Assembly: GCF_002735695.1 (NCBI RefSeq)
Contig: NZ_PDZH01000027.1
Coordinates: 1-43,917 of the forward strand
Reading direction: 5' to 3'
DNA: 43,917 nucleotides
From: Chitinimonas sp. BJB300
GTDB taxonomy: Bacteria; Pseudomonadota; Gammaproteobacteria; Burkholderiales; Chitinimonadaceae
The position numbers and the translations under genes were made by a program. Shown piece by piece: positions 14,075 to 30,292 of the stretch. The notes beneath the pieces are model-generated. The model was not told the DNA's origin, did not search any database, and was given only the letters and a program-made list of their open reading frames with translations. Positions within the stretch are counted from its first letter, which is position 1. Every line of letters starts with the position of its first letter.

Positions 14075-15097
14075 TTAGTGTGTCAGGGTGACTTTGTTCA
14101 GATGGCGCGGTTGGTCCGGGTCAAGTTCTCTCGCTCGGGAAAGGGCTTCCACCATAGGGTAGAAGGCTGCGATGGCGGTAATCGGGTCCAACTCTGCCAC
14201 CGGGGCAGGTGGCAACAGCAAGTCGCGGCTGGTGATGTCGGCCGGGGCGGCGAGTAACACCCGTGCACCCCGGTTGCGCATTTCTTCTGCGAGCTTGATC
14301 TGCCCGCCTTGGGCGGGGCCGCGTGGGGCGAAAATCAGCAGCGGATAGCCTTTATCGACCAGTGCCATCGGGCCGTGTTTTATTTCTGCACCGGAAAACG
14401 CTTCTGCCTGGATTGCTGCGGTCTCTTTGCATTTGAGTGCCGCTTCCATGGCAATGGGCAGCGTCAGCCCACGGCCGATTACCATGATGCGTTCGGCGTC
14501 CCGCAATATCTCGACGGCAGCAGACCAATCGGTTTCCTGAGCTTGTGCCAACGTATCAGGTAAGGCGGCAAGGCCGTCGAGCAGCGCGGTATCGTTGGTC
14601 CAATGGGCGATAATGCGTGCGCTGGCAGCCAGACTGGCGATATAGCTTTTGGTGGCGGCTACGGCGTATTCAGGGCCGGCTTCAAGCGGTAATGTCCACT
14701 CGGCGGCCTCGCCCAGCGGCGAGGTTGCGTCGTTGACGAGGGCAACGGTTTCGGCGTGGCCTGTGCGAAAGCGCTTGATGGGCTCGACCACATCGGGGCT
14801 GCGGCCCGACTGGGAAATAGCGACGGCGATGGTGCCGGCCACATCGAGTGGTGCGTCGTATAAGGTAACCAGCGACATAGGCAGCGATACCGCCATACGA
14901 CCCAGGCGCAGCATGGTGAGGTAGGAAAGATAAGCGCAGGCATGGTCCGAACTCCCACGCGCAACCGTTATCATGGCGTGGGGGTCCGTCTCGCGCAGGC
15001 GTTGGCCCAGTGCCTTGAAGTGGGCATTCTGTTTATCCGCTTGGCGCGCAACGACGGCAGGGCCTTCGCGCATCTCTTTCCACATACAGGTAGTCAC
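14075..15097 (-). CDS. SIS-domain glucosamine-6-phosphate deaminase (NagB-II type)
   Basis: About 340 residues with two SIS (sugar isomerase) domains. The first has VARGSSDHACAYLSYL and the serine-rich phosphosugar loop SQSGRSPD; the segment GPEYAVAATKSY closes the first domain and AEAFSGAEIKHGPMALV lies in the second, as in the NagB-II/AgaS and GlmS isomerase families. It has no glutamine amidotransferase domain, so deamination of GlcN-6-P to fructose-6-P and ammonia is the likely reaction rather than synthesis. The GTG at 15097 is preferred: GGAG lies 9 bases upstream and the resulting start resembles other NagB-II proteins; ATG codons at 15085 and 15073 are alternatives. It follows nagA by 87 bp, placing the last two steps of GlcNAc catabolism side by side. 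Confidence 0.88.
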   Translation of the reverse strand: MTTCMWKEMREGPAVVARQADKQNAHFKALGQRLRETDPHAMITVARGSSDHACAYLSYLTMLRLGRMAVSLPMSLVTLYDAPLDVAGTIAVAISQSGRSPDVVEPIKRFRTGHAETVALVNDATSPLGEAAEWTLPLEAGPEYAVAATKSYIASLAASARIIAHWTNDTALLDGLAALPDTLAQAQETDWSAAVEILRDAERIMVIGRGLTLPIAMEAALKCKETAAIQAEAFSGAEIKHGPMALVDKGYPLLIFAPRGPAQGGQIKLAEEMRNRGARVLLAAPADITSRDLLLPPAPVAELDPITAIAAFYPMVEALSRARELDPDQPRHLNKVTLTH

Positions 15098-15184
15098 TCG
15101 TTGCTTCTCCACAGTTACATCGCCAAGAGTCTGAAAAGCCTGCTGCGCACCAACAAAACGATATTGCAAATACTCCGGGTTGCG

Positions 15185-16285
15185 TTAAGCCGGCACCAGC
15201 TCACCTTCGACATAGACGGCTTTCAATCTCAGATTGCGATCGATAACCACAATATCCGCCTGCGCATCGGGCTTGAGTACGCCGCGGTCATCCAGGTCCA
15301 GCATTTCGGCTTGGTAGGTTGATAGCCGCCGCGCTGCATCATCGACCGGCAACCCAAGTCCGACCAGATTCCGCAGTGCTTCGTCCAGCGTAAGCGTCGA
15401 GCCGGCCAAGGTGCCATCGGACAGGCGTACGCCGCCCATGCACTTGGTGACGGTATGCCGGCCGAGCTTGTAGTTGCCGTCGGGCATGCCGGCTGCGGCG
15501 GTAGAGTCGGTAACGCAATACAGTTTCGGAATGGCGCGCAGGGCGGCCTTGATGGCACCTGGGTGTACATGCAACAGGTCGGGGATCAGCTCGGCGTATT
15601 CGGCATGGGCTAGGGCTGCACCTACCATGCCAGGCTCGCGGTGGTGCAGGCCACTCATGGCGTTGAAAAGATGCGTAAAGCTGATGGCCCCGTGCTGCAT
15701 GGCCTCAACACCGTCTTCATAGCTTCCCAGCGTATGGCCGAGCTGAACGCGGATGCCGCGCGTGACGAGGTCCCCAATCAAGGCCATGTGGCCATTTACC
15801 TCTGGAGCTAGCGTGAGCACCTTGAGTGGCGCGAACTCGCTGAAACCAGCGATCTCCTCAAGCATGCCATCACGGGTAAAGTTGGGCTGGGCCCCTAGCT
15901 TGCCCGGGTTGATATACGGCCCTTCCAAATGCACGCCCAGTACGCGCGCGCCGCCTGGGGTACGCTGCGCCATCGCGCGTTTGACTCCTTGCAACGCCAG
16001 CTCTATCTCCTGCTTGGGCGCAGTCATCGTCGTGGCCAGGATGCTGGTGGTGCCATGGCGCGCGTGGGTGCGGCTGATGGTATCGAGCGCGTCGCCGCCT
16101 TCCATGACATCACGACCGCCACCGCCGTGGACATGCAGGTCGATAAAGCCGGGTAGGAGGTAGTCGTCGTTGTTGTCGGCCGGGTCGGCAGCAAGCGCTT
16201 CAATACGGCCGATCTTATCGCTGAAGTGCAGCGCACCGTGTTGCCAGCCTGTGGGGGTGAGGATATTGCCGCGCAGGGTATGCAT
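15185..16285 (-). CDS. nagA: N-acetylglucosamine-6-phosphate deacetylase
   Basis: A protein of 366 residues in the amidohydrolase superfamily that removes acetate from GlcNAc-6-P to give GlcN-6-P. Metal and substrate residues are visible: H51 and H53 in HVHGGGG, E121 in HLEGPY, H184 in GHT, H205 in THLFNAM and the catalytic aspartate D260 in VTDSTAAAG. Length is normal for NagA. It sits between the GntR regulator (27-bp gap) and the SIS deaminase, matching the order of reactions. Confidence 0.95.
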   Translation of the reverse strand: MHTLRGNILTPTGWQHGALHFSDKIGRIEALAADPADNNDDYLLPGFIDLHVHGGGGRDVMEGGDALDTISRTHARHGTTSILATTMTAPKQEIELALQGVKRAMAQRTPGGARVLGVHLEGPYINPGKLGAQPNFTRDGMLEEIAGFSEFAPLKVLTLAPEVNGHMALIGDLVTRGIRVQLGHTLGSYEDGVEAMQHGAISFTHLFNAMSGLHHREPGMVGAALAHAEYAELIPDLLHVHPGAIKAALRAIPKLYCVTDSTAAAGMPDGNYKLGRHTVTKCMGGVRLSDGTLAGSTLTLDEALRNLVGLGLPVDDAARRLSTYQAEMLDLDDRGVLKPDAQADIVVIDRNLRLKAVYVEGELVPA

Positions 16286-16312
16286 ATTATTTTTTGGTCT
16301 TTTATTGGCGCA

Positions 16313-17059
16313 TTAACGGCGCAGCTCGGCGACAAAGTCGTAGTAGTCGTTGCGGCAGTAGGAATAGGTCAGCTCTACCGGTAGGCCGCTCTCCAGATAG
16401 CCGATGCGCGTAATCATCAGCATGGCCGAACCGGATGGAATGCCGGCCAATTGGGCAATTTCATCGCTGGCATTGATGGCCTTGATGTGTTGCAGGGCAC
16501 GGGTTACCGGTGTGCTGCGGCTGTCGAGCCAGCTGTAAAGTGAATCACCCATCGCGGTGGGGTCGGGCAGGTAGCGACTGGGTAGTGTGGATGTCTCGAC
16601 GGCCATCACGGTGTTGTCGGCCATGCGCAGACGCTTTATTCGGGCTACCGTGGCGGCAGGTGATAGCCCCAGGCGGAGCACTTCTTCCTGGCTGGCGATG
16701 CTGATGATACGGCTGAGCCAGCGTGAGGCTGGCGCAAAACCGCGATTGCGGATCTCTTCTGAAAAGCTGGTCAGGCGCGAAAGCGGTTGGACCAAGCGCG
16801 GGGCGATGTACGTGCCCGAACCTTGTCGCCGCACGATCAAGCCTTGCTCGAACAGGATATCCATGGCTTTGCGGGCGGTTACCCGCGAAATTTCGAGTAT
16901 TTCACACAGTACACGCTCGGATGGCAGCGCTTCATCGGCCTGCCATAATCCGGCCGAAATGGCGCTGGAGAGTTTGCTGGCCACCTGCAAATACAGGGGG
17001 GTGCTGCTTTCGGCATCTGGCTTGATAGCCAATAGTGCAGCTTCACGTGCCTTATCCAT
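16313..17059 (-). CDS. GntR/HutC-family regulator (NagR/DasR-like)
   Basis: A protein of 248 residues. An N-terminal winged helix-turn-helix (about 17-85: PLYLQVASKLSSAI, LPSERVLCEILEISRVTARKAM, the wing with RRQGSGTYIAP) is followed by a UTRA ligand domain (about 95-245). This is the HutC subfamily, whose members NagR, DasR and NagQ are released from DNA by GlcN-6-P or GlcNAc-6-P. It overlaps the kinase gene by 8 bp and precedes nagA by 27 bp, so it is almost certainly the local repressor of the operon. The candidate palindromes upstream of the kinase gene (17963-17979 and 18001-18017) are its likely targets. Confidence 0.92.
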   Translation of the reverse strand: MDKAREAALLAIKPDAESSTPLYLQVASKLSSAISAGLWQADEALPSERVLCEILEISRVTARKAMDILFEQGLIVRRQGSGTYIAPRLVQPLSRLTSFSEEIRNRGFAPASRWLSRIISIASQEEVLRLGLSPAATVARIKRLRMADNTVMAVETSTLPSRYLPDPTAMGDSLYSWLDSRSTPVTRALQHIKAINASDEIAQLAGIPSGSAMLMITRIGYLESGLPVELTYSYCRNDYYDFVAELRR

Positions 17060-17921
17060 TGATATGTTTCCGAATCAAGTACAGCGCGCCAGTGGCGGAG
17101 TCGCCCAGAGGCTGGCGGGCGCGGTTGACCAATGCTGTAGGCAGCCAGGGGCGAAGCGCCTCGGCCAGGCCACCACACAGCGCGAACGGCAAGGTTTCGT
17201 CTGGGTCGAGCGCATGCGCAATCGCCGCGATTTCTTCCCCTGCGAGGGCCAGGATAGTAGCAGCGGCGGCATCCTGCTGCCCGTAGGCCAACACCAGCGT
17301 TGCAAGTTGTGCGTAAGTGGTCTGGTTCGCTTGGCTCAGCCAGATAAAGGCCGGGTCGACCGAGCCGCCAAAATGGGTGATGACAGCGTCTGCCAATGGC
17401 CCTCGCATGGCGCGGCCATCCAGGGCTTTTTGCGCCAACTGAGCGGCGCGTAGGCCAATCCAGGCACCACTGCCCTCGTCACCAACGGGGAATCCCCAAC
17501 CTGACACAGTGCGTTTATTGTCGCCGCCAAACCAGGCTTCCCCTACGCTGCCGGTGCCGACAGCCACAATCACACCCGGCTGGCCGGCATGTGCGCCCAG
17601 CAGCGTGGTGAAGCCATCGTTATCAAGTCTGATTGCCGGGAAACTTGGCGCTTCGGCCAGGAAGGCCTGGGCCCAACTGGCGTTATGTACCCCTGCCAAC
17701 CCAAGGCCAATGGCGCAATGGGTGGGGTTGAAGGTTTGCCCCAGGTGGGCAAAGGCTTGTTCTGCGCAATGGCTGATGGCGCGCCAAGCCGCGCTGACGC
17801 CGAGCCCGAGGCCAGAGGGACCGCCTGTGGCGTGACTCAGTATCTGGCCGTCGCGATCTGCCAACAGCAACCGGGTTCCGGTGCCGCCGCCATCGACACC
17901 AATGAAAAAATCGAAGGACAT
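17052..17921 (-). CDS. BadF/BadG/BcrA-type N-acetylglucosamine kinase
   Basis: A protein of 289 residues with the ASKHA ATPase fold. The phosphate-1 motif is VDGGGTGTRLLL (residues 8-19); the phosphate-2 region contains IVAVGTGSVGEAW and is followed by GWGFPVGDEGSGAWIG, typical of GlcNAc kinases of the BadF family. It would phosphorylate GlcNAc released by the hexosaminidase, supplying nagA. It is the first gene of the reverse-strand operon and overlaps the GntR gene by 8 bp. The promoter region immediately upstream carries two palindromes. Confidence 0.9.
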   Translation of the reverse strand: MSFDFFIGVDGGGTGTRLLLADRDGQILSHATGGPSGLGLGVSAAWRAISHCAEQAFAHLGQTFNPTHCAIGLGLAGVHNASWAQAFLAEAPSFPAIRLDNDGFTTLLGAHAGQPGVIVAVGTGSVGEAWFGGDNKRTVSGWGFPVGDEGSGAWIGLRAAQLAQKALDGRAMRGPLADAVITHFGGSVDPAFIWLSQANQTTYAQLATLVLAYGQQDAAAATILALAGEEIAAIAHALDPDETLPFALCGGLAEALRPWLPTALVNRARQPLGDSATGALYLIRKHING

Positions 17922-18143: not shown

Positions 18144-18965
18144 TTACTTGGCTTTTCCGGTGGGGAAGAGCATTTGAGAGGCGTCTTCTGCACCCAGGTA
18201 TTTTTCGAGAATGCGCTTGAGCGTACCGTCGCGCCGCATGGATTCGATCAAATCGCTTACCCGTTGTGCTTGCTCAGCCGAAAAGCGTGCTTTCGATAGC
18301 ATCAGGCACACGGGGGCGCGCGCGTCTTCAGGCACCCAGTCTTCTACGCTGAAGTCATTCTCCAGTTGTTGTGCGGAGAGCATCGCGCGATACGCTGGTG
18401 CGGAAGAGATGATGGCTTGCACACGGCCAAGGCTCAGTATGTTGTAGAGTGCCTTGATGTCAGCCACTTCCAGTACGCGGCCTTGTTCTTGCAGTGTGGT
18501 GACAATCTTGGCGTAACCGGGCCCGTGTGAAAACGTGCGCCCGATGGCGATCTGCAACTGTGGGTTGGACATGAAAGCCTCCTTGCTACGCACTGGGGCG
18601 GCAGTCTTCCTGACAATGGCAAAGTTTCGGTGATAGATATAAGGCACCATCCAGGCGATTTTTTCGCGTTCCGGCGTTTGGAATTTGTGCCCGGCCATGT
18701 CGGCCGTCCCCGCCTCAATACGGCGCAGGATGCGTATGTTCGACTCGATATCTACTATTTTACGGCAGCCCATCCGACGTGCAATTTCGTCAAACAGCTC
18801 ATGATCAATCCCTGCGGGTTGCTTATCGGGTGTAAAGAAGTAATAGCGGCCAAATTCGTCGGCAGCGATGTGTAATTCCCGATCACAAGGGCTCGCCCAA
18901 GTGCTGGTTGGCGAGAATAGCAAACCGAGTATGAAACACCACAGACCTATCAGATGTACCCACAT
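18144..18965 (-). CDS. Orphan amino-acid-type substrate-binding protein (SBP family 3)
   Basis: About 273 residues. The ATG at 18965 is chosen because GGGAGG precedes it by 5 bases. A signal peptide (to about residue 25, TSTWAS) leads into a family-3 solute-binding fold, with the FFTPDKQPAGIDHELFDEIA opening and a segment ADMAGHKFQTPEREKIAW. Such proteins bind polar amino acids or act as sensors. No permease or ATPase of the polar amino-acid type lies beside it. It follows the DUF1854 gene in the same direction across 130 bp, so it may be co-transcribed with the cyanophycin accessory genes; binding of arginine, aspartate or a dipeptide is therefore possible but unproven. Confidence 0.8.
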   Translation of the reverse strand: MWVHLIGLWCFILGLLFSPTSTWASPCDRELHIAADEFGRYYFFTPDKQPAGIDHELFDEIARRMGCRKIVDIESNIRILRRIEAGTADMAGHKFQTPEREKIAWMVPYIYHRNFAIVRKTAAPVRSKEAFMSNPQLQIAIGRTFSHGPGYAKIVTTLQEQGRVLEVADIKALYNILSLGRVQAIISSAPAYRAMLSAQQLENDFSVEDWVPEDARAPVCLMLSKARFSAEQAQRVSDLIESMRRDGTLKRILEKYLGAEDASQMLFPTGKAK

Positions 18966-19094
18966 TGCCACCTCCCAATGCCGCTAGCACGGCATAGTCC
19001 CTGGATGTTTCTTTAGCATAGTGGGTTGATGCCCAAGTACGCAGTAAGCGTAATGCTTTGGTGCGGCGGGCTTGAGGCATGACGCGGGGCTATG

Positions 19095-19565
19095 TCAAAG
19101 GAAGCGGTCCAATAAGCGGCGGCTGGTCTTATCCAGTTTGGACAGATCACGAATCAGGAACTGTATACCGTGGCTGTCGAGCACCAGCAAGCCGTCCCGT
19201 CCCAGGCGGCGGATATCCTCTTCGCCTTTGAGAACAAGCGTGGTGGGGCCCCGGTCGGTGCGGACAGTCCAGGTGCTGGGCGTGGCGAAGCTGGATACCG
19301 CAATCAGCTGTTGCAGCTGCGGCATGAATTCGCGACTGGCCAATTCTTCTTCAATTAATAGGCGTTGGCTTTCCGGGAGATCGCTCAGGCGATCTACCCA
19401 GCCTACTTCGTGGCCGTCGGTGTTGATCAGCGAGATGCCGGCACCAGGGTCGGCAACGGGAAAAGCGCGAACGGGCACAACGCCCTCGTATCTGCCAGCA
19501 TCGGCAGATTCGAGCACCAAGCGGCCGAAGGCATTGCGCTGCAATTGAAATTTGGGTTGCGTCAT
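19095..19565 (-). CDS. DUF1854 protein associated with cyanophycin genes
   Basis: A protein of 156 residues, soluble and without a signal. The sequence follows the DUF1854 pattern: an N-terminal FQLQRNAFGRLVLE strand pair, GVVPVRAFPVADPGAGISLI, a middle helix with LIEEELASREFMPQL, and a C-terminal LVLDSHGIQFLIRDLSKLD. The family's function is unknown. It is regularly found next to a DUF1854-associated ABC transporter and cyanophycin synthetases, which is exactly the setting here: the ABC gene ends 14 bp upstream and the two cphA genes are divergent. It ends in a helix with several charged residues (KTSRRLLDRFL). Confidence 0.85.
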   Translation of the reverse strand: MTQPKFQLQRNAFGRLVLESADAGRYEGVVPVRAFPVADPGAGISLINTDGHEVGWVDRLSDLPESQRLLIEEELASREFMPQLQQLIAVSSFATPSTWTVRTDRGPTTLVLKGEEDIRRLGRDGLLVLDSHGIQFLIRDLSKLDKTSRRLLDRFL

Positions 19566-19579
19566 AGTTTTGTTCTCGC

Positions 19580-21844
19580 TTATTCGCTGTCGTCCGGGTC
19601 GGTATCGACGTTGCGGGCCTGCGCCTCATAGAGCCTGTAGTAAGCGCCTTCGCGAGCCATCAATTCGTTATGTGGGCCGACCTCGACGATTTCGCCGCGG
19701 TCCATGACCACCAGCCGGTCGGCTTGGCGCAGGGTGGAGAGGCGGTGGGCGATGGCGATGGTGGTACGGCCGCGCACGAGGTTGTCGAGCGCTTTTTGGA
19801 TCTCCTTTTCCGTTTCGGTATCTACGGACGACGTGGCTTCGTCGAGGATCAAAATACGGGGGTCGATCAGCAGCGCGCGGGCGATGGATATGCGCTGGCG
19901 TTCGCCACCCGACAAACCCTGGCCCCGTTCGCCCACCAGCGAGTCGTAACCGAGCGGTAAACGCAGAATGAACTCATGGGCATGGGCGGCACGGGCGGCG
20001 GCGATGATTTCCTCGCGTGAGGCATCGGGTTTACCGTAGGCGATGTTCTCGGCAATGGTGCCGAAGAAGAGAAAGGGCTCCTGCAACACCAGGCCGATAT
20101 TGCGGCGAAAGCTGCTGACAGTCAGCGAACGGATATCGGTGCCATCCAGCAGAATGGCCCCTTCGCTGACATCATAAAAACGGCAAATCAGATTCACCAG
20201 TGTACTTTTGCCCGACCCGCTGTGGCCGACCAATCCCACCATCTCGCCGGGTTTGATGGTGAGGGCAAGGTTTTTGATGACGGCGCGGTTGCCGTAGCGG
20301 AAGCGGATATTGCGCAGCTCTATTTCACCTTTGACGGGCCCCAGGGCGATGGGCTTGGTGGGCTCCGGCACATTTGAGACATGGTCGAGGATGTCAAATA
20401 TACGCTTGGCGGCGGCGGCGGCTTTCTGCGTGACCGACACAATGCGGCTCATCGAATCCAGCCGGCCATAGAAGCGGCCGATGTAAGCCAAAAAGGCCGT
20501 CAGCGTGCCAACAGTGACATTGTGGTGTGCAATCAGCCAAATACCGAAGGCCCACACCACCAAGAGGCCCATGTCGGTCAGCAACGACACGGTCGGCGAG
20601 AACAGCGACCAGACCTTGTTCAGCTTGTCGTTGATCAGGAGATTGTGCTTGTTGGCATCCCGAAAACGCGCAGCTTCCCGCGTTTCTTGCGCAAAGGCTT
20701 TCACGACGCGAATGCCGGGGATGGTGTCTGCCAGCACGCTGGTGACTTCGCTCCAAGTGCGGTCGATCTTCTCAAAGCCGGTACGCAGGCGGTCTCGCAC
20801 CAAATGGATCATCCAGGCAATCACCGGCAAGGGCAGCAGGGTGGCGAGCGCCAGCCAGGGGTTGATGCTGAACAGGATGACCGTGGTCATCAGGAGCATC
20901 AACACATCGGTGATGAAATCCAATGCATGCAGGGAAAGGAAGACACTGATCCGATCTGATTCAGAGCCGATTCGCGACATCAGGTCGCCTGTGCGCTTAC
21001 CGCCAAAATATTCCAGCGAGAGTTGCAGCAGGTGTTCGTAGGTGGTGGTGCGCAGGTCGGCACTGATGCGTTCGCTGACCAGGGCCAGGATATAGGTCTT
21101 TGCCCAACCCAGGCTCCAGGACACCATGGCTGCCCCCAACATGCCGGCAAGGTAGAACGCCACGATTTCAGGTTGGATATGTTCGCCGTTCTGAAAAGGG
21201 ATCAGCACTTTGTCCATCAGCGGCATGGTCAGGTAAGGGGCGACCAGGGTGGCGGCCGTTGAACCGAGCATCAGCAGAAAGCCGGCGAGCAATTGGCCTT
21301 GGTAAGGTTTGGCGAAGCGCCACAGCCGCAAGAGCGTCCATGTGGAGGGCGGTTGGTGGATTTCCCGACTGCACACCGGGCACTCTTCAGTGTCGGCATT
21401 CAGCTCACCCTTGCACTTGGGGCATAGATTCTTTTTCGGCGGTTGTACCGGATCGCCCGTCAGGACGCTTTGCAGCTGTTGCTGGAATTGGTCGATCAGT
21501 CGTAGTGCCGCCGGGCTGTTGGCCAGCGTGTAGCGCCACAAAGCCAACCTGCCGGTGCTATCGTGAAGCTCAAGGGCGGCGACGCCGGCGTGGTCGTGTT
21601 GGCTCAGTACCAACCCTGCGCGAAACGGAAAATTCAGCCAGCCGGTTTGGCCGGCAGGTTTGCTCAGGAGGCGTTGATTGGTCAGCAGAAGGAGGCCTGT
21701 GCCGAAGTGCAGGCGGTTGTCGAGATCTTGCTCGGCCCAGCTGACCAGCTCTTCATCGGCCCCCAGTTGAGCTGCGGCATCCACTTGCCATGTATCGGGT
21801 AGCGGATGCGGGATTACAGCATTGGCAGCGTGTTCGAATATCAT
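19580..21844 (-). CDS. Cyanophycin-associated ABC exporter with PH-like and zinc-ribbon N-terminus
   Basis: A protein of 754 residues with an unusual layout. Residues 1-130 resemble a bacterial PH-like domain (LLLLTNQRLLSKP and following strands). A zinc-ribbon follows, with C141, C144, C155 and C158 (CPKCKGEL...CPVC). Six membrane helices of an exporter fold span about 180-470. The nucleotide-binding domain has Walker A GHSGSGKST, signature LSGGERQRISIARALL, Walker B ILILDEATSSVD and the switch IAHRLSTL. Transmembrane and nucleotide-binding domains are fused, so it would act as a homodimer. It forms a unit with the DUF1854 gene (14-bp gap) and is divergent from the cphA pair. Such proteins are seen with cyanophycin genes, but the substrate is unknown; an exported peptide or a granule- or membrane-linked role are both possible. 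Confidence 0.9.
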   Translation of the reverse strand: MIFEHAANAVIPHPLPDTWQVDAAAQLGADEELVSWAEQDLDNRLHFGTGLLLLTNQRLLSKPAGQTGWLNFPFRAGLVLSQHDHAGVAALELHDSTGRLALWRYTLANSPAALRLIDQFQQQLQSVLTGDPVQPPKKNLCPKCKGELNADTEECPVCSREIHQPPSTWTLLRLWRFAKPYQGQLLAGFLLMLGSTAATLVAPYLTMPLMDKVLIPFQNGEHIQPEIVAFYLAGMLGAAMVSWSLGWAKTYILALVSERISADLRTTTYEHLLQLSLEYFGGKRTGDLMSRIGSESDRISVFLSLHALDFITDVLMLLMTTVILFSINPWLALATLLPLPVIAWMIHLVRDRLRTGFEKIDRTWSEVTSVLADTIPGIRVVKAFAQETREAARFRDANKHNLLINDKLNKVWSLFSPTVSLLTDMGLLVVWAFGIWLIAHHNVTVGTLTAFLAYIGRFYGRLDSMSRIVSVTQKAAAAAKRIFDILDHVSNVPEPTKPIALGPVKGEIELRNIRFRYGNRAVIKNLALTIKPGEMVGLVGHSGSGKSTLVNLICRFYDVSEGAILLDGTDIRSLTVSSFRRNIGLVLQEPFLFFGTIAENIAYGKPDASREEIIAAARAAHAHEFILRLPLGYDSLVGERGQGLSGGERQRISIARALLIDPRILILDEATSSVDTETEKEIQKALDNLVRGRTTIAIAHRLSTLRQADRLVVMDRGEIVEVGPHNELMAREGAYYRLYEAQARNVDTDPDDSE

Positions 21845-22122
21845 TAGGGGCTACTTGCTTGAGTCAAGGCAGCATGACTCGGGTTGGTGGCAGGATTGCG
21901 CAATACATTTTTGCAATGTAAATGTTGTGGTTGCGCAAGGTAGTGCAGGCGACGATTGGTTGGCAAGATCAGCATAGGCTGATTTGTGTTAAGCCGAACT
22001 TAAGCTTGCATAGCTCAGTATTCACGATTATACCCGCGCCCCTGAGCTCGCCGAATTAGTCTGTCACTGGCTCGCTCGCAATTGGATGGATGCGTGTTTG
22101 CCTTTCCCTTGATTATTGGATC
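21845..22122. promoter_or_regulatory. Divergent control region between exporter and cphA' genes
   Basis: About 280 bp between the reverse ABC exporter and the forward cphA' gene, presumably holding both promoters. Repeated GGTTG/TTGCGCAA words occur near 21890-21945 and a TTAAGC...CTTAAGC pair near 21989-22005. No sigma-54 site and no unambiguous -10/-35 pair was found. Confidence 0.4.
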
Positions 22123-24285
22123 ATGAAGAAAAATATCGAGTTTCTCCGCGTCGCTTATCTAGGCGGCCCAAATATCTGGACCTATCGGCCAGTGGTCGAA
22201 GCCTGGGTTGATATTGGCGCGCTGGAAGATGCGCCCTCCAATACCATCCCCGGTTTTTACGAACGTTTGACTGATTGGCTGCCCGGTTTGATAGAGCATC
22301 GTTGCGGCGTAGGCGAGCGTGGCGGCTTTCTGCAGCGCTTGCGCGAGGGTACTTGGGCGGGCCACATCATGGAACATGTGGCAATTGAGCTACAGAATCT
22401 TGCTGGCCTGAAAGTGGGTTTCGGCAAGGCGCGTGGTGTGGGTAAGTCTCATCCGGGCATCTACAAGGTTGCTGTCCGTGCCCGTAACGAACAGGTAGGT
22501 ATCGCCGCAATCCACGCCGCACGTGATTTGGTCATGGCGGCGGTTGAGGATCATCCTTACGATGTGGCGGCCACGGTAGTCAAATTACGCGATCTGATCG
22601 ACGAACATCATCTTGGCCCCAGTACGGCGGCCATTGTCGATGCGGCAGCCGAGCGGCGCATTCCTTATATCCGTCTTAACGGCGGCAATTTGGTTCAGCT
22701 TGGGTATGGCGCCAGTCAGCGCCGTATCTGGACGGCTGAAACAGACCAGACCAGTGCGATTGCTGAGGGTATTTCCAGCGACAAGGATATGACCAAGCGG
22801 TTGTTGCGGGCTTGCGGCGTGCCGGTGCCCGATGGCGAGGTGGTGGATAGCCCTGCTGCGGCGTGGCAAGCGGCGCAAGACATCGGCCTGCCCGTCGTAA
22901 TCAAGCCCACCGATGGTAATCATGGCCGTGGTATCACTCTGGATGCACGTGAGCAGACTGATATCGAGGCGGCCTACCATTTTGCCGAGCGGCACGGTAG
23001 CGAAGTGATGGTCGAGCGCTTTATTCCCGGTAATGAACATCGCCTGTTGGTAATAGGTGGCAAAGTTGTTGCCGCAGCGCGTGGTGAAACCGCCTGGGTG
23101 AAGGGAGATGGCACATCGACCGTGGTTGAATTGGTGGAGCGCCAACTCAACAGCGACCCACGTCGGGGCGATGCCGAGGCTTTCCCATTGAGCCGAATTG
23201 ATATCGACGAAGACGGAGCCATCTTGAATGACCTTGCTCGTCAGGGTTTGACTGCCGATTCCGTGCCGGCGGCCGATCAAGCAGTATTGATTCAGCGCAA
23301 TGGCAATGTAGCCAATGAAGTCAGCGATTTGGTGCACCCGGATGTTGCCGCGACAGTTTCACTGGCTGCACGTATTGTTGGCCTTGATATTGCCGGGGTG
23401 GATGTCGTTGCCGAGGATATCGGCCGTCCGCTCGAAGAGCAGGGTGGCGCTGTCGTGGAGGTCAATGCGGGCCCTGGCTTGCTGATGCATTTGAAGCCGG
23501 CGGGCGGCGAAGCCCAACCTGTTGGGCGTGCGATCGTGGATCACCTTTTCCCTGCAAGTAGCGCCAGTGCTGGTCGTATTCCGGTGGTGGGGGTGTGTGG
23601 AACAGAACAGACTCAGCAAGTGGCACGATTGGTTGCGCGCCTGTTGCAGTTGTCGGGCTTGCATACGGGCTTGGCATGCAAGGATGGGCTCTTTCTGGAC
23701 CGCCGCTGTTTCGACGCCGGCGATGGTACAGCGCTTCAAGCCGGCCAACGTCTGCTGATCAACCGGTCAGTGCAGGCTGCCGTGTTTGAGAACAGCGCCG
23801 AGACGATTCTGCAGCAAGGCCTGAGCTATGATCGCTGTAATGTGGGCATCGTGACGGACGCCAACGGTGTCGAGGCACTCAGCCCGTTTTATATCAATGA
23901 TGAAGATCAGCATTACAACGTACTGCGTACGCAGGTTGATGTCGTGTTACCAAGCGGTTCGGCGATATTGAATGCGGATGATGAACGGGTGCTTGAGCTG
24001 GCGGACCTGTGCGACGGCGAGGTCATTCTGTATGGCCTGGATGCAGCATCGCCCGCCATGGTCGAGCATTTGGCCCAAGGTGGGCGTGCGGTGCTGGTGC
24101 GAGCCGGCGAATGGCTTTTGGTGCAGGGTGATGTGGAAACCCGCCTGGGTGTCTTGCCCGTAGGGCGCACTCTTACTCCTGCAACCTTGTTGGCTGCGAC
24201 GGCTGCGTCGTGGGCCATGGGTTTGCCAGTTGAACTGATTGGTGTGGGTATCGAAACCTTTGTCAGCGAGTCGAATCTGGGCTGA
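22123..24285 (+). CDS. cphA': Cyanophycin synthetase-like protein CphA' with degenerate ligase half
   Basis: About 720 residues, homologous to CphA along most of its length. The N-terminal domain and ATP-grasp domain are intact in appearance (LGPSTAAIVDAA, PVVIKPTDGNHGRGI, MVERFIPGNEHRLLVI, EVNAGPGLLMHLKP). The Mur-ligase-like half is degraded: where CphA has GTNGKTTT, this protein has GTEQTQQV (from residue 493), without the lysine and threonine that hold ATP phosphate, and the C-terminal Mur domain is missing. It probably keeps one ligation activity only, as in CphA2/CphA' proteins that join beta-Asp-Arg units. The ATG at 22123 is preferred for its homology with CphA; both it and the ATG at 22090 have weak ribosome sites. 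It precedes cphA by 65 bp. Confidence 0.88.
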   Translation: MKKNIEFLRVAYLGGPNIWTYRPVVEAWVDIGALEDAPSNTIPGFYERLTDWLPGLIEHRCGVGERGGFLQRLREGTWAGHIMEHVAIELQNLAGLKVGFGKARGVGKSHPGIYKVAVRARNEQVGIAAIHAARDLVMAAVEDHPYDVAATVVKLRDLIDEHHLGPSTAAIVDAAAERRIPYIRLNGGNLVQLGYGASQRRIWTAETDQTSAIAEGISSDKDMTKRLLRACGVPVPDGEVVDSPAAAWQAAQDIGLPVVIKPTDGNHGRGITLDAREQTDIEAAYHFAERHGSEVMVERFIPGNEHRLLVIGGKVVAAARGETAWVKGDGTSTVVELVERQLNSDPRRGDAEAFPLSRIDIDEDGAILNDLARQGLTADSVPAADQAVLIQRNGNVANEVSDLVHPDVAATVSLAARIVGLDIAGVDVVAEDIGRPLEEQGGAVVEVNAGPGLLMHLKPAGGEAQPVGRAIVDHLFPASSASAGRIPVVGVCGTEQTQQVARLVARLLQLSGLHTGLACKDGLFLDRRCFDAGDGTALQAGQRLLINRSVQAAVFENSAETILQQGLSYDRCNVGIVTDANGVEALSPFYINDEDQHYNVLRTQVDVVLPSGSAILNADDERVLELADLCDGEVILYGLDAASPAMVEHLAQGGRAVLVRAGEWLLVQGDVETRLGVLPVGRTLTPATLLAATAASWAMGLPVELIGVGIETFVSESNLG

Positions 24286-24350
24286 GCCCAAACGATGAGT
24301 CATTGGCAGTGCTGATGGTGCCGCCGTTTTACGTTTTAGGATAAGCACGA

Positions 24351-26921
24351 ATGGAAGTTTCACGTATCCGCGCCTTGCGCGGCCCCAATCTGTGGAGTCG
24401 GCATACGGTTATCGAGGCAGTTGTTTCCTGCAGCGAAGATGAATGCGCCATTGCCAACATTCCCGGTTTTGAAGCTCGCCTGCGCGCCTGCTTTCCCTAT
24501 ATTGCGACATTGCAGCCCATGGGGCATGAAGACCCGGTTTCGATGGCCCATGCACTTGAGCTTGCTGCTTTGGGCTTGCAGGAGCATGCAGGGTGCCCGG
24601 TTACTTTCAGCCGTACTGTCCAGACGCTTGAGACCGGGGTGTTTCAGGTTGTGGTTGAGTACAGCGAAGAAGTGGTTGGCCGGTTGGCTTTTGACTTGGC
24701 TCAGGCGCTTTGCCTTGCAGCCCTCGACGATACCCCGTTCGATTTGGCCGATGCTTTGGCGCGTTTGCATGAATTGGATGAGGATGAGCGATTGGGCCCG
24801 AGTACGGGCGCCATTGTGGATGCTGCATTGGCACGGGGTATTCCATTCCGCCGCCTGACCCAGGGTAGCCTGGTGCAGTTTGGCTGGGGTAGTAAACAGC
24901 GCCGGATTCAAGCGGCGGAAATAGATCGCACCGGTGCCATTGCAGAAGCGATCGCGCAGGACAAGGAGTTGACCAAGACCCTGCTGCATGCCGCTGGTGT
25001 GCCGGTGCCGCTGGGACGGCCGGTGCGGGATGCCGAGGATGCCTGGGCCGCTGCGATGGAAATTGGCCTTCCTGTTGTGGTGAAGCCGCAAGATGGCAAC
25101 CAGGGCAAAGGTGTGACAGTGAACATTGTTACGCGAGACCACCTGGAGATTGCATATAGATCGGCACGGGAGTTTCGCGACGACATCATGGTCGAGCGCT
25201 ATCTGCCTGGACACGACTTCCGCTTGCTGGTTGTCGGTGACAAGCTGATTGCTGCCGCACGGCGTGACCCACCGCAAGTCATTGGCGACGGCGTACATAC
25301 GGTTCGGCAACTGGTTGACCAAGTGAATACCGACCCACGTCGTGGCGAAGGCCATGCCACATCATTAACCAAGATCCGCTTTGACGACATCGCCATGGCT
25401 CGCCTTGCGGTGCAGGGCCTGACTGCCGATGCCGTGCCGGTTAAGGGCCAGCGGGTGGTGTTGCGCAATAACGCTAATCTCAGCACCGGCGGTTCCGCTA
25501 CCGATGTGACCGACAATGTCCACCCTGAAGTGGCGGCCCGCGCGGTTGCGGCAGCCAAAATGGTGGGTTTGGACATCTGTGGCGTGGATATGGTGTGCGA
25601 TAGTGTGCTCCAGCCCTTGGAAGAGCAGGGTGGCGGTATTGTCGAAGTGAATGCAGCACCCGGTCTGCGCATGCATTTGAGTCCTTCATACGGTAAAGGC
25701 CGGGCGGTGGGTGAAGCCATCGTTACCGAATTGTTTGGTCATGGTGATGATGGCCGTATTCCCGTCGTGGCGGTGACGGGTACCAATGGCAAGACCACTA
25801 CCGTGCGCCTGATAACCCACTTGATCATGCAAAGTGGCTTGCGCGTTGGCATGACCAACACCGATGGGGTTTACGTTAATGGTAAGCGCATCGATAGCGG
25901 CGACTGTAGCGGCCCACGCAGCGCCCGTAATGTGCTGTTGCATCCCGATGTGGACGCTGCCGTGTTTGAAACCGCACGGGGTGGTGCTTTGCGTGAAGGC
26001 TTGGCGTTCGACCGTTGCCAAGTGGCGGTGGTCACCAATATCGGCATGGGTGATCACCTTGGGTTGAACTACATCACGACGGTCGAGGACCTGGCTGTAC
26101 TCAAGCGCGTTATTGTGCAGAACGTAGCGTTGAACGGCACGGCCGTATTGAATGCGGCTGACCCCTTGGTCGTCAAGATGGCGGCACACTCACCGGGTGA
26201 AGTTATCTTCTTTGCCGCTGACGGGCACAACCCTGTCATGGTCATGCAGCGTACCCAGGGTAAGAAGGTGGTATTCGTTGAAGGTGGCCAGATTATCGCG
26301 GCGGAAGGCAATTTCCGTTATGCCATTCCATTGATAGGCGTACCCATCACTCATGGCGGCAGTATTGGCTTCCAGGTTGAGAATGTGATGGCTTCTGTGG
26401 CGGCTGCTTGGGCGCTGAATCTGGATTGGAAGATTGTTGCGATTGGTTTGGCGAATTTCGCCAACGATGCCAATAACGCCCCCGGCCGTTTCAATTTGTT
26501 CAACTACCGTGGTGCGACGGTAATAGCAGACTATGGCCACAACCCTGATGCTATGCTGGCTTTGGTTCAGGCAGTGAAGGCGATCCCAGCCAAGCGGCGT
26601 TCGGTGGTGATCAGCGGTGCGGGTGATCGGCGCGATGATGATATCCGCCAGCAAACCCAGATTTTGGGTGCAGCCTTTGAAGAAGTACTGCTTTATCAAG
26701 ATGCCTGCCAGCGTGGACGTTTGGATGGTGAGGTGATCGGCTTGTTGAAAGAAGGCCTCAAGAATGCACCATGCACAAAATACGTTGTAGAGATTCGCGG
26801 TGAGTTCCTCGCGATCGACACAGCCTTGGCGCGCTTGCAGCCGGGCGATCTTTGCCTGATTCTGGTCGATCAGGTCGAGGAAGCATTGGCCTATATCACC
26901 CAGCAGGTTACCGCAGGTTGA
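24351..26921 (+). CDS. cphA: Cyanophycin synthetase
   Basis: A protein of 856 residues, the normal length for CphA, which builds the Asp-Arg storage polymer from ATP, aspartate and arginine. An N-terminal domain (1-160) is followed by an ATP-grasp domain that adds aspartate (LVQFGWGSKQRRI, PVVVKPQDGNQGKGV, MVERYLPGHDFRLLV, EVNAAPGLRMHLSP). The Mur-ligase-like domain that adds arginine has an intact P-loop GTNGKTTT (477-484), FETARGGALREGL, VVTNIGMGDHLGL and the late NAPGRFN and DYGHNPDA motifs. Cytoplasmic. It forms a two-gene unit with cphA' and ends with a strong hairpin at 26984-27013. No cyanophycinase gene is seen within the window. Confidence 0.95.
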   Translation: MEVSRIRALRGPNLWSRHTVIEAVVSCSEDECAIANIPGFEARLRACFPYIATLQPMGHEDPVSMAHALELAALGLQEHAGCPVTFSRTVQTLETGVFQVVVEYSEEVVGRLAFDLAQALCLAALDDTPFDLADALARLHELDEDERLGPSTGAIVDAALARGIPFRRLTQGSLVQFGWGSKQRRIQAAEIDRTGAIAEAIAQDKELTKTLLHAAGVPVPLGRPVRDAEDAWAAAMEIGLPVVVKPQDGNQGKGVTVNIVTRDHLEIAYRSAREFRDDIMVERYLPGHDFRLLVVGDKLIAAARRDPPQVIGDGVHTVRQLVDQVNTDPRRGEGHATSLTKIRFDDIAMARLAVQGLTADAVPVKGQRVVLRNNANLSTGGSATDVTDNVHPEVAARAVAAAKMVGLDICGVDMVCDSVLQPLEEQGGGIVEVNAAPGLRMHLSPSYGKGRAVGEAIVTELFGHGDDGRIPVVAVTGTNGKTTTVRLITHLIMQSGLRVGMTNTDGVYVNGKRIDSGDCSGPRSARNVLLHPDVDAAVFETARGGALREGLAFDRCQVAVVTNIGMGDHLGLNYITTVEDLAVLKRVIVQNVALNGTAVLNAADPLVVKMAAHSPGEVIFFAADGHNPVMVMQRTQGKKVVFVEGGQIIAAEGNFRYAIPLIGVPITHGGSIGFQVENVMASVAAAWALNLDWKIVAIGLANFANDANNAPGRFNLFNYRGATVIADYGHNPDAMLALVQAVKAIPAKRRSVVISGAGDRRDDDIRQQTQILGAAFEEVLLYQDACQRGRLDGEVIGLLKEGLKNAPCTKYVVEIRGEFLAIDTALARLQPGDLCLILVDQVEEALAYITQQVTAG

Positions 26922-26983: not shown

Positions 26984-27013
26984 AGGCCCGTCAATCTTCT
27001 GGTTGGTGGGCCT
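26984..27013 (+). terminator. Hairpin terminator of the cphA unit
   Basis: A 12-bp stem with a few G-U pairs, AGGCCCGTCAAT (26984-26995) and GTTGGTGGGCCT (27002-27013), with a 6-base loop, is followed by TTGTGTC. It lies 62 bp after the cphA stop. Confidence 0.7.
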
Positions 27014-28877: not shown

Positions 28878-29990
28878 ATGAGTTTATGGAGCAAACTGAC
28901 CGCCGAATTCATTGATATTGTTGAATGGACGGAAGACCGACCCGATGTGCTGGTGCATCGCTTCGACCGGTACCAGAACGAAATCAAGATGGGCGCTAAA
29001 CTCACTGTGCGTGAAGGCCAATTGGCTGTAATGGTGAACGAGGGGCAATTAGGCAAGGGGCAGGTAGCGGATGTATTCGCCCCAGGTATGTACACGCTGT
29101 CGACAGAGAACATGCCACTCTTGTCCACGCTGAAGGGGTGGAAATACGGCTTCAATTCTCCCTTCAAAGCGGAAGTGTATTTCTTCAATACCAAAATCTT
29201 TACTGATTTGAAGTGGGGTACACCCGGCCCGGCTACCATGCGCGACCCGGAATTTGGTGTTGTTCGGGTGACGTCCTTTGGTCTTTACGCCATTCGTGTC
29301 AAAGATCCGAAGACGATGTTGGTGGATTTGGTAGGTACAAAGGCGGAATTCACTGTCGGCGATATTGAAGAGAATTTGCGCGGCAAGGTAGGCACCCGAA
29401 TCAAAGAAGTAATGCCGGAAGCCGGTGTGCCGGTGATCGACCTGGAGAGTAAGGTAACCTTGCTGGGTGAGCGCATTCGCGAGAAAATTTCCGCCGACTT
29501 TGAAAAATTCGGTTTGGAACTGACCGAGGTCCAGGTTCAGGACATTGGCTTGCCAGAAGAGGTGGAAAAAGCCATCGACCAACAAGGTGCGATGCGCGCC
29601 ATTGGCAATATGCAGCAGTTCGGGCAATACCAAGCTGCACAGGCGATGCGCGAAGCTGCGCAAAACCCTGGCACTGTCGGTGGTGTCATGGGATTGGGCG
29701 TCGGAATGGGGTTGAATCAAGCGATGGGTGGTTTGTTCCAACAGCCGGCAGCGTCTGGTGCGACGACACCGCCGCCATTGCCGACCCAAGCGGCCTTTTT
29801 TGTAGCGATGAATGGGCAGCAAACTGGGCCATTTGATATGGCCACGCTGCAGTCTCAGGCTCAAGCTGGCCAACTCGGGCGGGATACCTTGATCTGGAAG
29901 CAGGGTATGGTCAGCTGGGCTGCGGCAGGCGAACAAGCGGAACTGGCAAATTTATTTGCGCAGACACCACCGCCATTGCCCCCACAGTAA
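28878..29990 (+). CDS. SPFH-domain protein with C-terminal GYF_2 domain (YdjI-like)
   Basis: A protein of 370 residues. Residues 1 to about 270 form an SPFH/band-7 domain of the YdjI or 'virion core' type (VLVHRFDRYQNEIKMGAKL, RDPEFGVVRVTSFGLYAIRV, LTEVQVQDIGLPEEVEKAI). A glycine/methionine-rich linker follows, then a Pro-rich stretch, a GYF_2 domain at about 318-362 (AMNGQQTGPFDMATLQ, DTLIWKQGMVSW) and a final PPPLPPQ. SPFH proteins scaffold membranes; in Bacillus the YdjI relative acts with a PspA-like protein and a zinc-ribbon protein (YdjG) in membrane stress. A zinc-ribbon gene follows here at 30908. AAGGAGGA lies 6-10 bases before the start. No PspA homologue is seen nearby. Confidence 0.88.
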   Translation: MSLWSKLTAEFIDIVEWTEDRPDVLVHRFDRYQNEIKMGAKLTVREGQLAVMVNEGQLGKGQVADVFAPGMYTLSTENMPLLSTLKGWKYGFNSPFKAEVYFFNTKIFTDLKWGTPGPATMRDPEFGVVRVTSFGLYAIRVKDPKTMLVDLVGTKAEFTVGDIEENLRGKVGTRIKEVMPEAGVPVIDLESKVTLLGERIREKISADFEKFGLELTEVQVQDIGLPEEVEKAIDQQGAMRAIGNMQQFGQYQAAQAMREAAQNPGTVGGVMGLGVGMGLNQAMGGLFQQPAASGATTPPPLPTQAAFFVAMNGQQTGPFDMATLQSQAQAGQLGRDTLIWKQGMVSWAAAGEQAELANLFAQTPPPLPPQ

Positions 29991-30007
29991 GTGGGATATA
30001 TCTGATA

Positions 30008-30036
30008 CGCGTGGGGTTTACGACCAACCCTACGTG
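30008..30036 (+). terminator. Hairpin after the SPFH gene
   Basis: An 11-bp stem with two G-U pairs, CGCGTGGGGTT (30008-30018) and AACCCTACGTG (30026-30036), lies 18 bp after the stop. No T-run follows, so factor-independent termination is doubtful. Confidence 0.5.
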
Positions 30037-30292
30037 CTATCTCAATCGTGTTCACCAATACTTCAAAACCCGATCACTGTCTCACGGCACATGCACATCC
30101 CTTATCGGGGTTCAGTGCTGCTCGAAATCTTCATATACCTATGTACACCCCAGTGCCTGTGCTAGGCCTTGCTGAGTAGTGTTCGCGACGGGTTTTGAAG
30201 TGGTTTTTAAGTACTACTTCTTCACTGCTTCTTTCGGTAACAGCTAGCCTTTACTTTGATGGTCATCGTAAAAAGGCTGTGTTTGTCAGAGC

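What the first reader, a model, noticed from the sequence alone, without database searches (positions are those of the whole stretch)
18144..26921. Cyanophycin locus with an unexplained exporter module
An ABC exporter with an N-terminal PH-like domain and a four-cysteine zinc ribbon, and a DUF1854 protein, are divergent from cphA' and cphA. Polymer synthesis needs no exporter, so the module implies an undescribed step: membrane or granule attachment, export of Asp-Arg peptides, or signalling of nitrogen surplus. Recurrent association of these families with cyanophycin genes is known from annotation, but the role is not.
Basis: partly seen in the sequence, partly recalled or inferred. Interest (0 to 1): 0.7.

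Follow-up and report, generated by a model that had tools for sequence, protein, structure and literature searches.

The report
Exporter-linked split cyanophycin synthesis system
Four neighbouring genes, a two-part enzyme resembling the one that makes the nitrogen polymer cyanophycin plus a membrane exporter and its small partner, form a fixed set in many bacteria that lack the usual genes for breaking the polymer down inside the cell, which hints that they make it to send it out rather than to store it.

Summary
In detail: an ABC exporter with an N-terminal PH-like domain and a four-Cys ribbon, and a DUF1854 gene, are divergent from cphA' and cphA. NCBIfam already names both after cyanophycin metabolism, and one paper noted the ABC gene beside two cphA copies without cphB. 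No role was found in the papers searched. The four genes behave as one unit: in 200 genomes of the order, ABC and DUF1854 occur in the same 68, all with cphA. Of 8 other cphA genomes, 6 have only a conventional cphA, 1 has its ABC gene cut by a contig end, 1 is incomplete. Cyanophycinase above 200 bits occurs in 7 of 200, exactly the 7 with conventional cphA. IaaA is in 7/7 of those, 16/67 module-only and 26/124 cphA-negative genomes. CphA' and CphA split catalytic sites: CphA' keeps the N-domain hydrolase (57/57) and has mostly lost an Arg-ligase residue (51/57); CphA is the reverse. Best reading: a synthesis-and-export branch of cyanophycin metabolism, with DUF1854 and the PH/ribbon domain coupling synthetase to exporter. 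Export, substrate and product length are inferred. ABC-DUF1854 pairs also occur in two cphA-less genomes, so the pair is not confined to cyanophycin.

The parts
19095..19565 (-). DUF1854 protein (156 aa), partner of the exporter
   Evidence: PF08909 171 bits; NF052234 231 bits over 150; same 68 of 200 genomes as the ABC gene
19580..21844 (-). ABC exporter (754 aa) with N-terminal extension
   Evidence: NF052233 1404 bits over 880; PF00664 and PF00005
21458..21796 (-). PH-like domain of the exporter (residues 17-129)
   Evidence: AlphaFold pLDDT 84; Foldseek top hits PH/PTB-type folds, E 3e-3, probability 1.0
21371..21424 (-). four-Cys ribbon, CxxC-x10-CxxC (residues 141-158)
   Evidence: sequence; Cys columns at least 90% conserved in 60 rows; a simple pattern finds it in 47 of 58 in a second set. 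Metal binding not tested
20465..21292 (-). transmembrane domain (residues 185-460)
   Evidence: PF00664 1.9e-45
19829..20275 (-). nucleotide-binding domain with intact Walker A and signature motif
   Evidence: PF00005 3.2e-35; in 58 ABC proteins compared (window and two cphA-less ones included): Walker A 58, LSGGE 57, ILDEATS 46, IAHRL 53
21845..22089 (.). shared divergent intergenic region (245 bp)
   Evidence: no clear regulator site
22090..24285 (+). CphA' (731 aa; possible start Met12 at 22123): N-domain hydrolase site and conventional G-domain loop kept, Mur-ligase domain truncated and degenerate
   Evidence: TIGR02068 694 bits, no PF02875; residues
22297..22377 (+). HxC (22297-22305) and HxxEH (22363-22377): N-domain primer-making hydrolase site
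   Evidence: H57, C59, H79, E82, H83 equivalents 57 of 57 in CphA'; site defined in PMC9262961
23590..23616 (+). degenerate Mur-ligase P-loop of CphA' (GVCGTEQTQ)
24351..26921 (+). CphA (856 aa): Mur ligase intact, N-domain site lost, G-domain loop altered (NQGKG)
   Evidence: TIGR02068 961 bits, PF08245, PF02875; residues
25779..26066 (+). Mur-ligase P-loop GTNGKTTT (25779-25802) and GMGDHLGL (26043-26066) of CphA
26984..27013 (+). terminator-like hairpin after cphA (13 pairs)
   Evidence: the number of such sites in the region (9) is no more than in shuffled sequence (mean 8.6)

Best explanation
This is a synthesis-and-export branch of cyanophycin metabolism. CphA' and CphA act together as a two-component synthetase. 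CphA' supplies an ATP-grasp (Asp-adding) site and the N-domain endo-hydrolase that cuts chains into short pieces; CphA supplies the Mur-ligase (Arg-adding) site. The product, most likely short beta-Asp-Arg chains, is not stored for intracellular breakdown. The dedicated type IV ABC exporter moves it across the inner membrane. DUF1854, made next to the exporter, and the exporter's PH-like/ribbon extension serve as the docking and gating platform that ties synthetase to transporter. Shown here: the four-gene unit, its separation from cytosolic-type cyanophycinase, the lack of IaaA enrichment, the reciprocal loss of N and M sites, conserved exporter ATPase motifs and the PH-like fold (predicted). 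Inferred: export, substrate identity, chain length, complex formation, cytosolic side of the extension, and what the exported material does outside.
For: (1) Unit: ABC and DUF1854 in the same 68 of 200 genomes of the order, all 68 with cphA. Of 80 named loci fetched by DUF1854, 75 hold CphA' and/or CphA; the other 5 hold neither and have the pair at or near a contig end; 57 divergent, 18 in one co-directional run ABC-DUF1854-CphA'(-CphA). In G366 and G329 module and cphA pair lie far apart on one contig, yet both are kept. (2) No dedicated catabolism: cyanophycinase above 200 bits in 7 of 200 genomes, exactly those with conventional CphA; among 80 tested CphA+ genomes, 10 of 10 conventional-only versus 0 of 69 module-only. 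IaaA (PF01112): 7/7 conventional, 16/67 module-only, 26/124 cphA-negative, the last two not different, p = 0.71. The window's genome has no cyanophycinase hit above 136 bits and no IaaA or IadA hit at E 1e-30. That 136-bit protein, and those of G205, G251, G285 and G366, have signal-peptide-like N-terminal sequence judged by eye, in G000 and G285 after choosing a later start. (3) Division of labour: N-site residues 57/57 in CphA', C59 0/54 in CphA; D585+H586 in 6/57 CphA' and 54/54 CphA. CphA', CphA and conventional CphA each lie on one side of a branch of the unrooted tree, SH-aLRT 100. (4) In 53 of 79 loci DUF1854 can start with a 4-nt overlap on the ABC stop, which suggests translational coupling. 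(5) Exporter motifs conserved.
Against: No transport, no product and no interaction were measured. A search for one known enzyme family does not exclude an unknown cytosolic cyanophycinase, which Sharon and Schmeing suggested. CphZ was not searched, and IadA only in 65 genomes; IadA was also absent from the 7 conventional genomes there, so its absence from module genomes carries no weight. ABC-DUF1854 pairs also occur in two cphA-less genomes (G184, G001), so such a pair can serve another substrate. The G domain of CphA is conserved with a coordinated H267Q/R269K change rather than decayed; two extra CphA genes of G239 and the one seen in G553 also carry Q, so Q may be active and the split may be N/M only. 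Six CphA' keep D585 and H586, and 19 keep the P-loop Lys. Three module-only genomes have a cyanophycinase-family hit over the curated cut-off (G000, G205, G285). Nearly all module genomes belong to one order, so counts are not independent.
Confidence: 0.48

Rival explanations
1. Storage after all: CphA'/CphA make ordinary cytosolic granules broken down by an unrecognised enzyme, and the exporter module anchors synthesis or granules at the membrane, or exports something else.
For: Sharon and Schmeing propose unknown cyanophycinase isozymes for beta-proteobacteria. A PH-like domain is a typical attachment domain (recalled; fold). The N-domain of CphA' belongs to a family with endo-cyanophycinase activity, so it could take part in breakdown.
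Against: No further gene recurs near the unit: in a crude clustering, beyond the core families the commonest neighbour is in 9 of 81 loci. IaaA is not enriched in module genomes. ATPase motifs are conserved, which an anchor alone would not need.
Confidence: 0.3
2. DUF1854 or another module protein is the missing cyanophycinase.
For: DUF1854 tracks the systems without cytosolic-type cyanophycinase.
Against: Its conserved residues show no evident catalytic triad or metal site (reading by eye); the predicted fold gave no confident match, only weak hits to polo-box domains and others with TM about 0.2. DUF1854 also occurs beside an ABC gene without cphA.
Confidence: 0.06
3. The module is a nitrogen- or arginine-surplus safety valve or signal: the exporter moves arginine, dipeptide or a regulator, and cphA is only co-regulated.
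For: Two module genomes keep the pair and cphA far apart. ABC-DUF1854 pairs exist without cphA. An ArgR-like palindrome is slightly over-represented between the divergent genes: 17 of 35 regions with at most 4 mismatches against 65 of 210 local shuffles, p = 0.05.
Against: Strict linkage to the CphA'/CphA type and not to conventional cphA suggests coupling to the product. The ArgR signal is weak: 2 of 12 permuted control palindromes reach 19 of 35, and the window's own best site has 5 mismatches.
Confidence: 0.16

Closest known systems
Cyanophycin metabolism-associated ABC transporter (NCBIfam NF052233) and DUF1854 protein (NF052234)
   Same: The window proteins are members, well over both curated cut-offs
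   Different: The families carry a name by association; no mechanism is stated in the model descriptions seen
Conventional cyanophycin system: one CphA1 with CphB and dipeptidase
   Same: Same synthetase superfamily and domains
   Different: N, G and M sites in one CphA in 10 of 12 full-length proteins compared, cyanophycinase in 10 of 10 conventional-only genomes, IaaA in 7 of 7, no ABC/DUF1854 hit in the conventional-only genomes
'Group 1' cphA clusters of activated-sludge bacteria (PMC10687191, section 11 read)
   Same: Two cphA copies, an ABC transporter, no cphB
   Different: The section read does not mention DUF1854, suggests a composite transposon, and leaves the role open. Here the DUF1854 proteins of the window and of one cphA-less genome match nothing in 72,556 plasmid records at E 1e-5
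Type IV exporters such as MsbA and the cyclic glucan exporter
   Same: Among the best general matches of the transporter core (MsbA model 482 bits, glucan exporter model 402 bits)
   Different: Both below their curated cut-offs; the matched stretches begin at residues 172 and 262, so they leave out the PH-like/ribbon extension

Membership tests
NF052233 CphA-associated ABC | whole-protein score over 880 bits | tested here: met
   1404 bits
NF052234 CphA-associated DUF1854 | whole-protein score over 150 bits | tested here: met
   231.4 bits
Cyanophycin synthetase TIGR02068 (CphA) | score over 850 bits | tested here: met
   961 bits
Cyanophycin synthetase TIGR02068 (CphA') | score over 850 bits | tested here: not met
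   694 bits
Storage-type CphA1 | N-, G- and M-site residues in one polypeptide | tested here: not met
   in the window the N site is only in CphA' and the M site only in CphA; 57 CphA' and 54 CphA compared
Storage-type cyanophycin system | cytosolic cyanophycinase (CphB type) in the genome | tested here: not met
   own genome: one hit, 136 bits (over the 126.6 cut-off, far below the 214-260 of conventional systems), with signal-peptide-like start by eye
Storage-type cyanophycin system | isoaspartyl dipeptidase (IaaA or IadA) | tested here: not met
   own genome: no hit at E 1e-30 for PF01112 or TIGR01975; CphZ not searched
Storage-type cyanophycin system | intracellular granules | not testable with these tools
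   needs microscopy or extraction
ABC exporter, type IV | fused TMD-NBD with Walker A and signature motif | tested here: met
   PF00664, PF00005; motifs
PH superfamily | seven-stranded fold capped by C-terminal helix | tested here: met
   predicted model and Foldseek; no significant sequence match to a solved structure
Zinc ribbon | two CxxC knuckles binding zinc | tested here: inconclusive
   Cys pattern present; that stretch of the model has pLDDT about 65; metal not testable

The most novel reading that the evidence does not exclude
A second biological use of cyanophycin: many beta-proteobacteria and relatives make short beta-Asp-Arg chains with a heteromeric synthetase and export them through a dedicated ABC-DUF1854 machine as an extracellular or envelope material rather than a nitrogen store. 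This would explain the known absence of cyanophycinase in these bacteria.
Probability: 0.4. Interest if true: 0.82.

Novelty: new variant of a known kind. Interest (0 to 1): 0.64.

Why it matters
In print, the near absence of cyanophycinase from cphA-bearing beta-proteobacteria (found in 2.8% of 903 genomes, PMC10206079) is called unanticipated and is put down to a possible unknown enzyme, because cyanophycin is only known as a store. The genome pattern found here offers another answer: those bacteria carry a distinct synthetase pair tied to an exporter. If true, cyanophycin is also an exported polypeptide, nitrogen budgets inferred from cphA in wastewater and soil bacteria need revision, and DUF1854 gets a first testable role. 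The missing-cyanophycinase question becomes testable with a few gene deletions.

Tried and rejected
Regulation: in 35 divergent intergenic regions, sigma-54, NtrC and sigma-70 consensus matches did not clearly stand out from shuffles. An ArgR-like palindrome did, weakly: 17 of 35 regions with at most 4 mismatches, against 25 of 105 simple shuffles and 65 of 210 local shuffles, p = 0.05; 2 of 12 permuted control palindromes reached 19 of 35, so I do not build on it. Promoter-like and terminator-like counts in the window do not clearly exceed shuffles. Mobile element: the window's DUF1854 protein and that of G184 match nothing in 72,556 plasmid records, so plasmid carriage is not supported; transposon ends were not looked for. 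A further recurrent gene in the cluster: none in a crude ORF clustering. DUF1854 fold identity: no confident match. First idea dropped: that the G domain of CphA is dead because H267 is Q in 52 of 54. H267A is inactivating in SuCphA1 and the four distinct solved enzymes have H, but Q also occurs in CphA genes of G239 and G553 outside the split pairs, and the other G-loop residues examined are conserved, so I claim only an altered site. The wide DUF1854 alignment could not be used for a collection scan; a narrower one was used and the best 80 of 245 confirmed matches were kept, so the 80 named loci are close relatives and say nothing about cphA-free ones. cphA-free pairs were seen in only two genomes (G184, G001), with a DUF1854 fragment in a third (G043) without an adjacent ABC exporter; their neighbours gave no functional clue.

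Rows dropped: G319 (79% complete, partial CphA) was left out of the cyanophycinase search because of the 80-handle cap, so that call covers 80 of 81 CphA+ genomes; one search covers it and lists no hit for it. Weak cyanophycinase-family hits in module genomes G258 and G189 (31 and 21 bits) were not examined further. The 54 CphA rows exclude fragments under 800 aa; the 57 CphA' and 54 CphA come from the loci fetched, not from all 68 genomes. One CphA' row (G091) could not be aligned in the G loop. G305 lacks a full ABC gene only because its contig ends. The tree used 63 chosen rows. IadA was searched in 65 genomes (7 conventional, 29 module, 29 cphA-negative). The figure of about 40 module genera in one Fisher test is approximate. 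Of the 5 named loci without CphA, L234 has 5.9 kb free on one side and 0.6 kb on the other, so a divergent cphA' is absent there and a co-directional one would be off the contig.
Full report
WHAT IS THERE. The window is one whole contig of a 4.74 Mb, 374-contig genome. Its nearest named relative by the DUF1854 protein is Chitinimonas taiwanensis (76% identity). On the minus strand lie an ABC exporter (19580-21844) and, 14 bp downstream, a DUF1854 gene (19095-19565). Divergent from them, after 245 bp, are cphA' (22090-24285) and cphA (24351-26921). NCBIfam already has models for both accessory proteins, named after cyanophycin metabolism, and the window proteins pass them easily. The first ORF of the stated range, an SBP_bac_3 protein, is a bystander: no relative of it is in the 80 named loci.

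ARCHITECTURE. Residues 17-129 of the exporter are predicted, mostly with pLDDT above 90, as a short helix, seven strands and a capping helix. Four cysteines at 141-158 form a CxxC-x10-CxxC ribbon; their columns are at least 90% conserved in 60 relatives, while a simple pattern finds the ribbon in 47 of 58 proteins of a wider set. In those 58 (the window and two cphA-less ones included) Walker A is found in 58, LSGGE in 57, ILDEATS in 46 and IAHRL in 53. DUF1854 is predicted as a two-part beta-rich protein (pLDDT 87, pTM 0.53) with only weak matches, best to polo-box domains at TM about 0.2; I see no evident hydrolase site.

A FOUR-GENE UNIT. In 200 genomes of the order, NF052233 finds the ABC gene in 68, PF08909 finds DUF1854 in the same 68, and all 68 have CphA at E up to 1e-150. 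Eight further genomes have CphA without the ABC hit: six carry only conventional CphA, G305 has its ABC gene cut by a contig end, and G319 is 79% complete with a partial hit. In the wider class sample of 185, CphA over the cut-off occurs in 7, the ABC gene in 3 and DUF1854 in 6: the three ABC genomes all have CphA, and the three extra DUF1854 genomes have none over the cut-off. In a phylum sample of 299 DUF1854 occurs in 16, of which 15 belong to the same order and one (G553) lies outside the class. Of 80 named loci brought in by DUF1854 (the best 80 of 245 matches), 75 hold CphA' and/or CphA, 57 divergent and 18 in one direction as ABC-DUF1854-CphA'(-CphA); the other 5 hold neither and have the pair at or near a contig end. 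A blastp search with two conventional cyanophycinases found none in the 80 loci. In a crude clustering no other gene recurs in more than 9 of 81 neighbourhoods. In 53 of 79 loci DUF1854 can start with a 4-nt overlap on the ABC stop codon. In G366 and G329 the two halves are far apart on one contig, yet both present.

TWO KINDS OF CYANOPHYCIN SYSTEM. Cyanophycinase (TIGR02069) above 200 bits occurs in 7 of 200 genomes, exactly the 7 with conventional CphA (six conventional-only and G239, which has both kinds). Among 80 tested CphA-bearing genomes from the order and class samples it is in 10 of 10 conventional-only and 0 of 69 module-only genomes. Weaker hits over the curated cut-off of 126.6 (131 to 164 bits) occur in three module-only genomes (G000, the window's own, G205 and G285), in G239 as a second copy, and in three cphA-negative genomes. 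I read the N-termini of those of G000, G205, G239 (second copy) and G285, and of the sub-threshold ones of G251 and G366: they contain signal-peptide-like stretches, by eye only, in G000 and G285 after choosing a later start. They resemble extracellular scavenging enzymes. IaaA (PF01112, E up to 1e-30) is in 7 of 7 conventional, 16 of 67 module-only and 26 of 124 cphA-negative genomes, so module genomes show no enrichment (p = 0.71). IadA (TIGR01975) was found in 1 of 65 genomes, a cphA-negative one, and in none of the 7 conventional ones either, so it does not discriminate. The window's own genome has neither dipeptidase at the thresholds used. CphZ was not searched.

DIVISION OF LABOUR. Published work places a primer-making endo-cyanophycinase (Cx19HxxEH) in the N domain of CphA1, and uses E82Q, H267A and D585A/H586A as inactivating changes of the N, G and M sites (PMC9262961; passages and discussion read). 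On an alignment of 57 CphA', 54 CphA and 12 full-length conventional CphA, the five N-site residues are present in 57 of 57 CphA'. C59 is absent in 54 of 54 CphA and HxxEH is broken in 52 of 54. D585 and H586 are both present in 54 of 54 CphA and only 6 of 57 CphA'; the P-loop Lys is in 54 of 54 CphA and 19 of 57 CphA'. Of the 12 conventional proteins 10 keep the N site and H267; the 2 exceptions are both from G239. The G-domain loop is NHGRG in most CphA' (H267 in 55 of 57) and NQGKG in most CphA (Q in 52 of 54). The four distinct solved enzymes have His there. Because Q also occurs in the two extra CphA genes of G239 and in the CphA of G553, which keeps its N-site motif and a GDHLG motif, I treat this as an altered and not a proven dead site. 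In an unrooted tree of 63 rows CphA', CphA and conventional CphA each lie on one side of a branch, SH-aLRT 100. I saw no report of this partition in the search listings or in the passages read; most subscription papers, including the Ralstonia eutropha study by Adames et al. 2013 (seen only in a reference list), are not held, so this is not a claim of absence from print.

WHAT IS KNOWN. The lack or rarity of cyanophycinase in beta-proteobacteria is in print (PMC10206079, 2.8% of 903 genomes, passages; PMC5178258, passages; for one species PMC5670224, passages). The cluster of two cphA genes with an ABC transporter and no cphB was described for activated-sludge taxa, and its role left open (PMC10687191, section 11 read). 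The word DUF1854 occurs in no paper of the library. So the association is known. What is added here is its strictness, DUF1854 as a constant companion in this order, its separation from cytosolic-type cyanophycinase, the lack of IaaA enrichment, and the split of active sites.

MECHANISM. The data fit a pathway that makes beta-Asp-Arg chains with a two-component synthetase and exports them. A chain-cutting site kept in every CphA' examined, and an exporter with conserved ATPase motifs, would give short, transportable chains; DUF1854 and the PH/ribbon extension, both taken to lie in the cytosol (inferred), would couple synthesis to export. The main rival is storage with an unknown cyanophycinase and a membrane-attachment role for the module. 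ABC-DUF1854 pairs in two cphA-less genomes (39/33% and 36/22% identity to the window pair) show that the pair is a wider transport module; that it was recruited to cyanophycin is inference. I put export of the CphA'/CphA product at about 0.48.

LIMITS. All the evidence is comparative or predicted, nearly all module genomes are from one order, and Fisher values ignore relatedness. Genus counts (6 conventional genera, all with cyanophycinase, against roughly 40 module genera without) reduce but do not remove that problem.

Noticed in passing
L040:7480-10218 (G184), L041:2606-5304 (G001): ABC exporter with N-terminal extension and two CxxC pairs next to DUF1854 in genomes without cphA over the cut-off; neighbours include a winged-helix regulator and NnrS in one, a periplasmic binding protein in the other. 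The substrate of this wider module is unknown.
   Followed up: partly
L042:9944-10276 (G043): Short DUF1854 ORF (110 aa) without an adjacent ABC exporter, in a locus whose neighbours resemble those of G184: perhaps a decaying copy.
   Followed up: no
L295:6281-11782 (G553): ABC-DUF1854 divergent from a CphA that keeps the N-site motif and GDHLG with Gln in the G loop; a possible intermediate before the CphA'/CphA split. The contig ends inside the gene, and the genome is listed with 8% contamination.
   Followed up: partly
L131 and L156 (G239): One genome holds both systems: two extra CphA genes near cyanophycinase and IaaA, and a separate CphA'/CphA/ABC/DUF1854 unit; a natural test case.
   Followed up: partly
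L046:12192-13877, L048:14155-15831, L135:10686-12443, L193:9803-11542, L194:6823-8541, L196:3077-4795: Beside six conventional cphA genes lies a 558-585 aa protein that matches the Mur-ligase part of CphA (30-36% identity) and keeps its P-loop and DH residues.
   Followed up: no
L043:8733-10715 (G091): CphA' with a diverged ATP-grasp loop that could not be aligned, although the N-site motif is intact.
   Followed up: no
L128:3024-4292 (own genome, contig 336): Cyanophycinase-like S51 protein with signal-peptide-like start, beside genes that look by eye like sugar-nucleotide enzymes; possibly extracellular.
   Followed up: partly
window 12593-17921: Genes that look by eye like a sugar-binding protein, a SIS-type sugar isomerase, a NagA-like deacetylase and a GntR-type regulator, with a BadF-type ATPase (PF01869): probably an amino-sugar utilisation operon.
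   Followed up: no
window 28878-31990: SPFH-domain protein with a GYF_2 domain (28878-29990), followed by a protein (30860-31990) with several CxxC pairs near its N-terminus and a hydrophobic stretch at its end, by eye.
   Followed up: no
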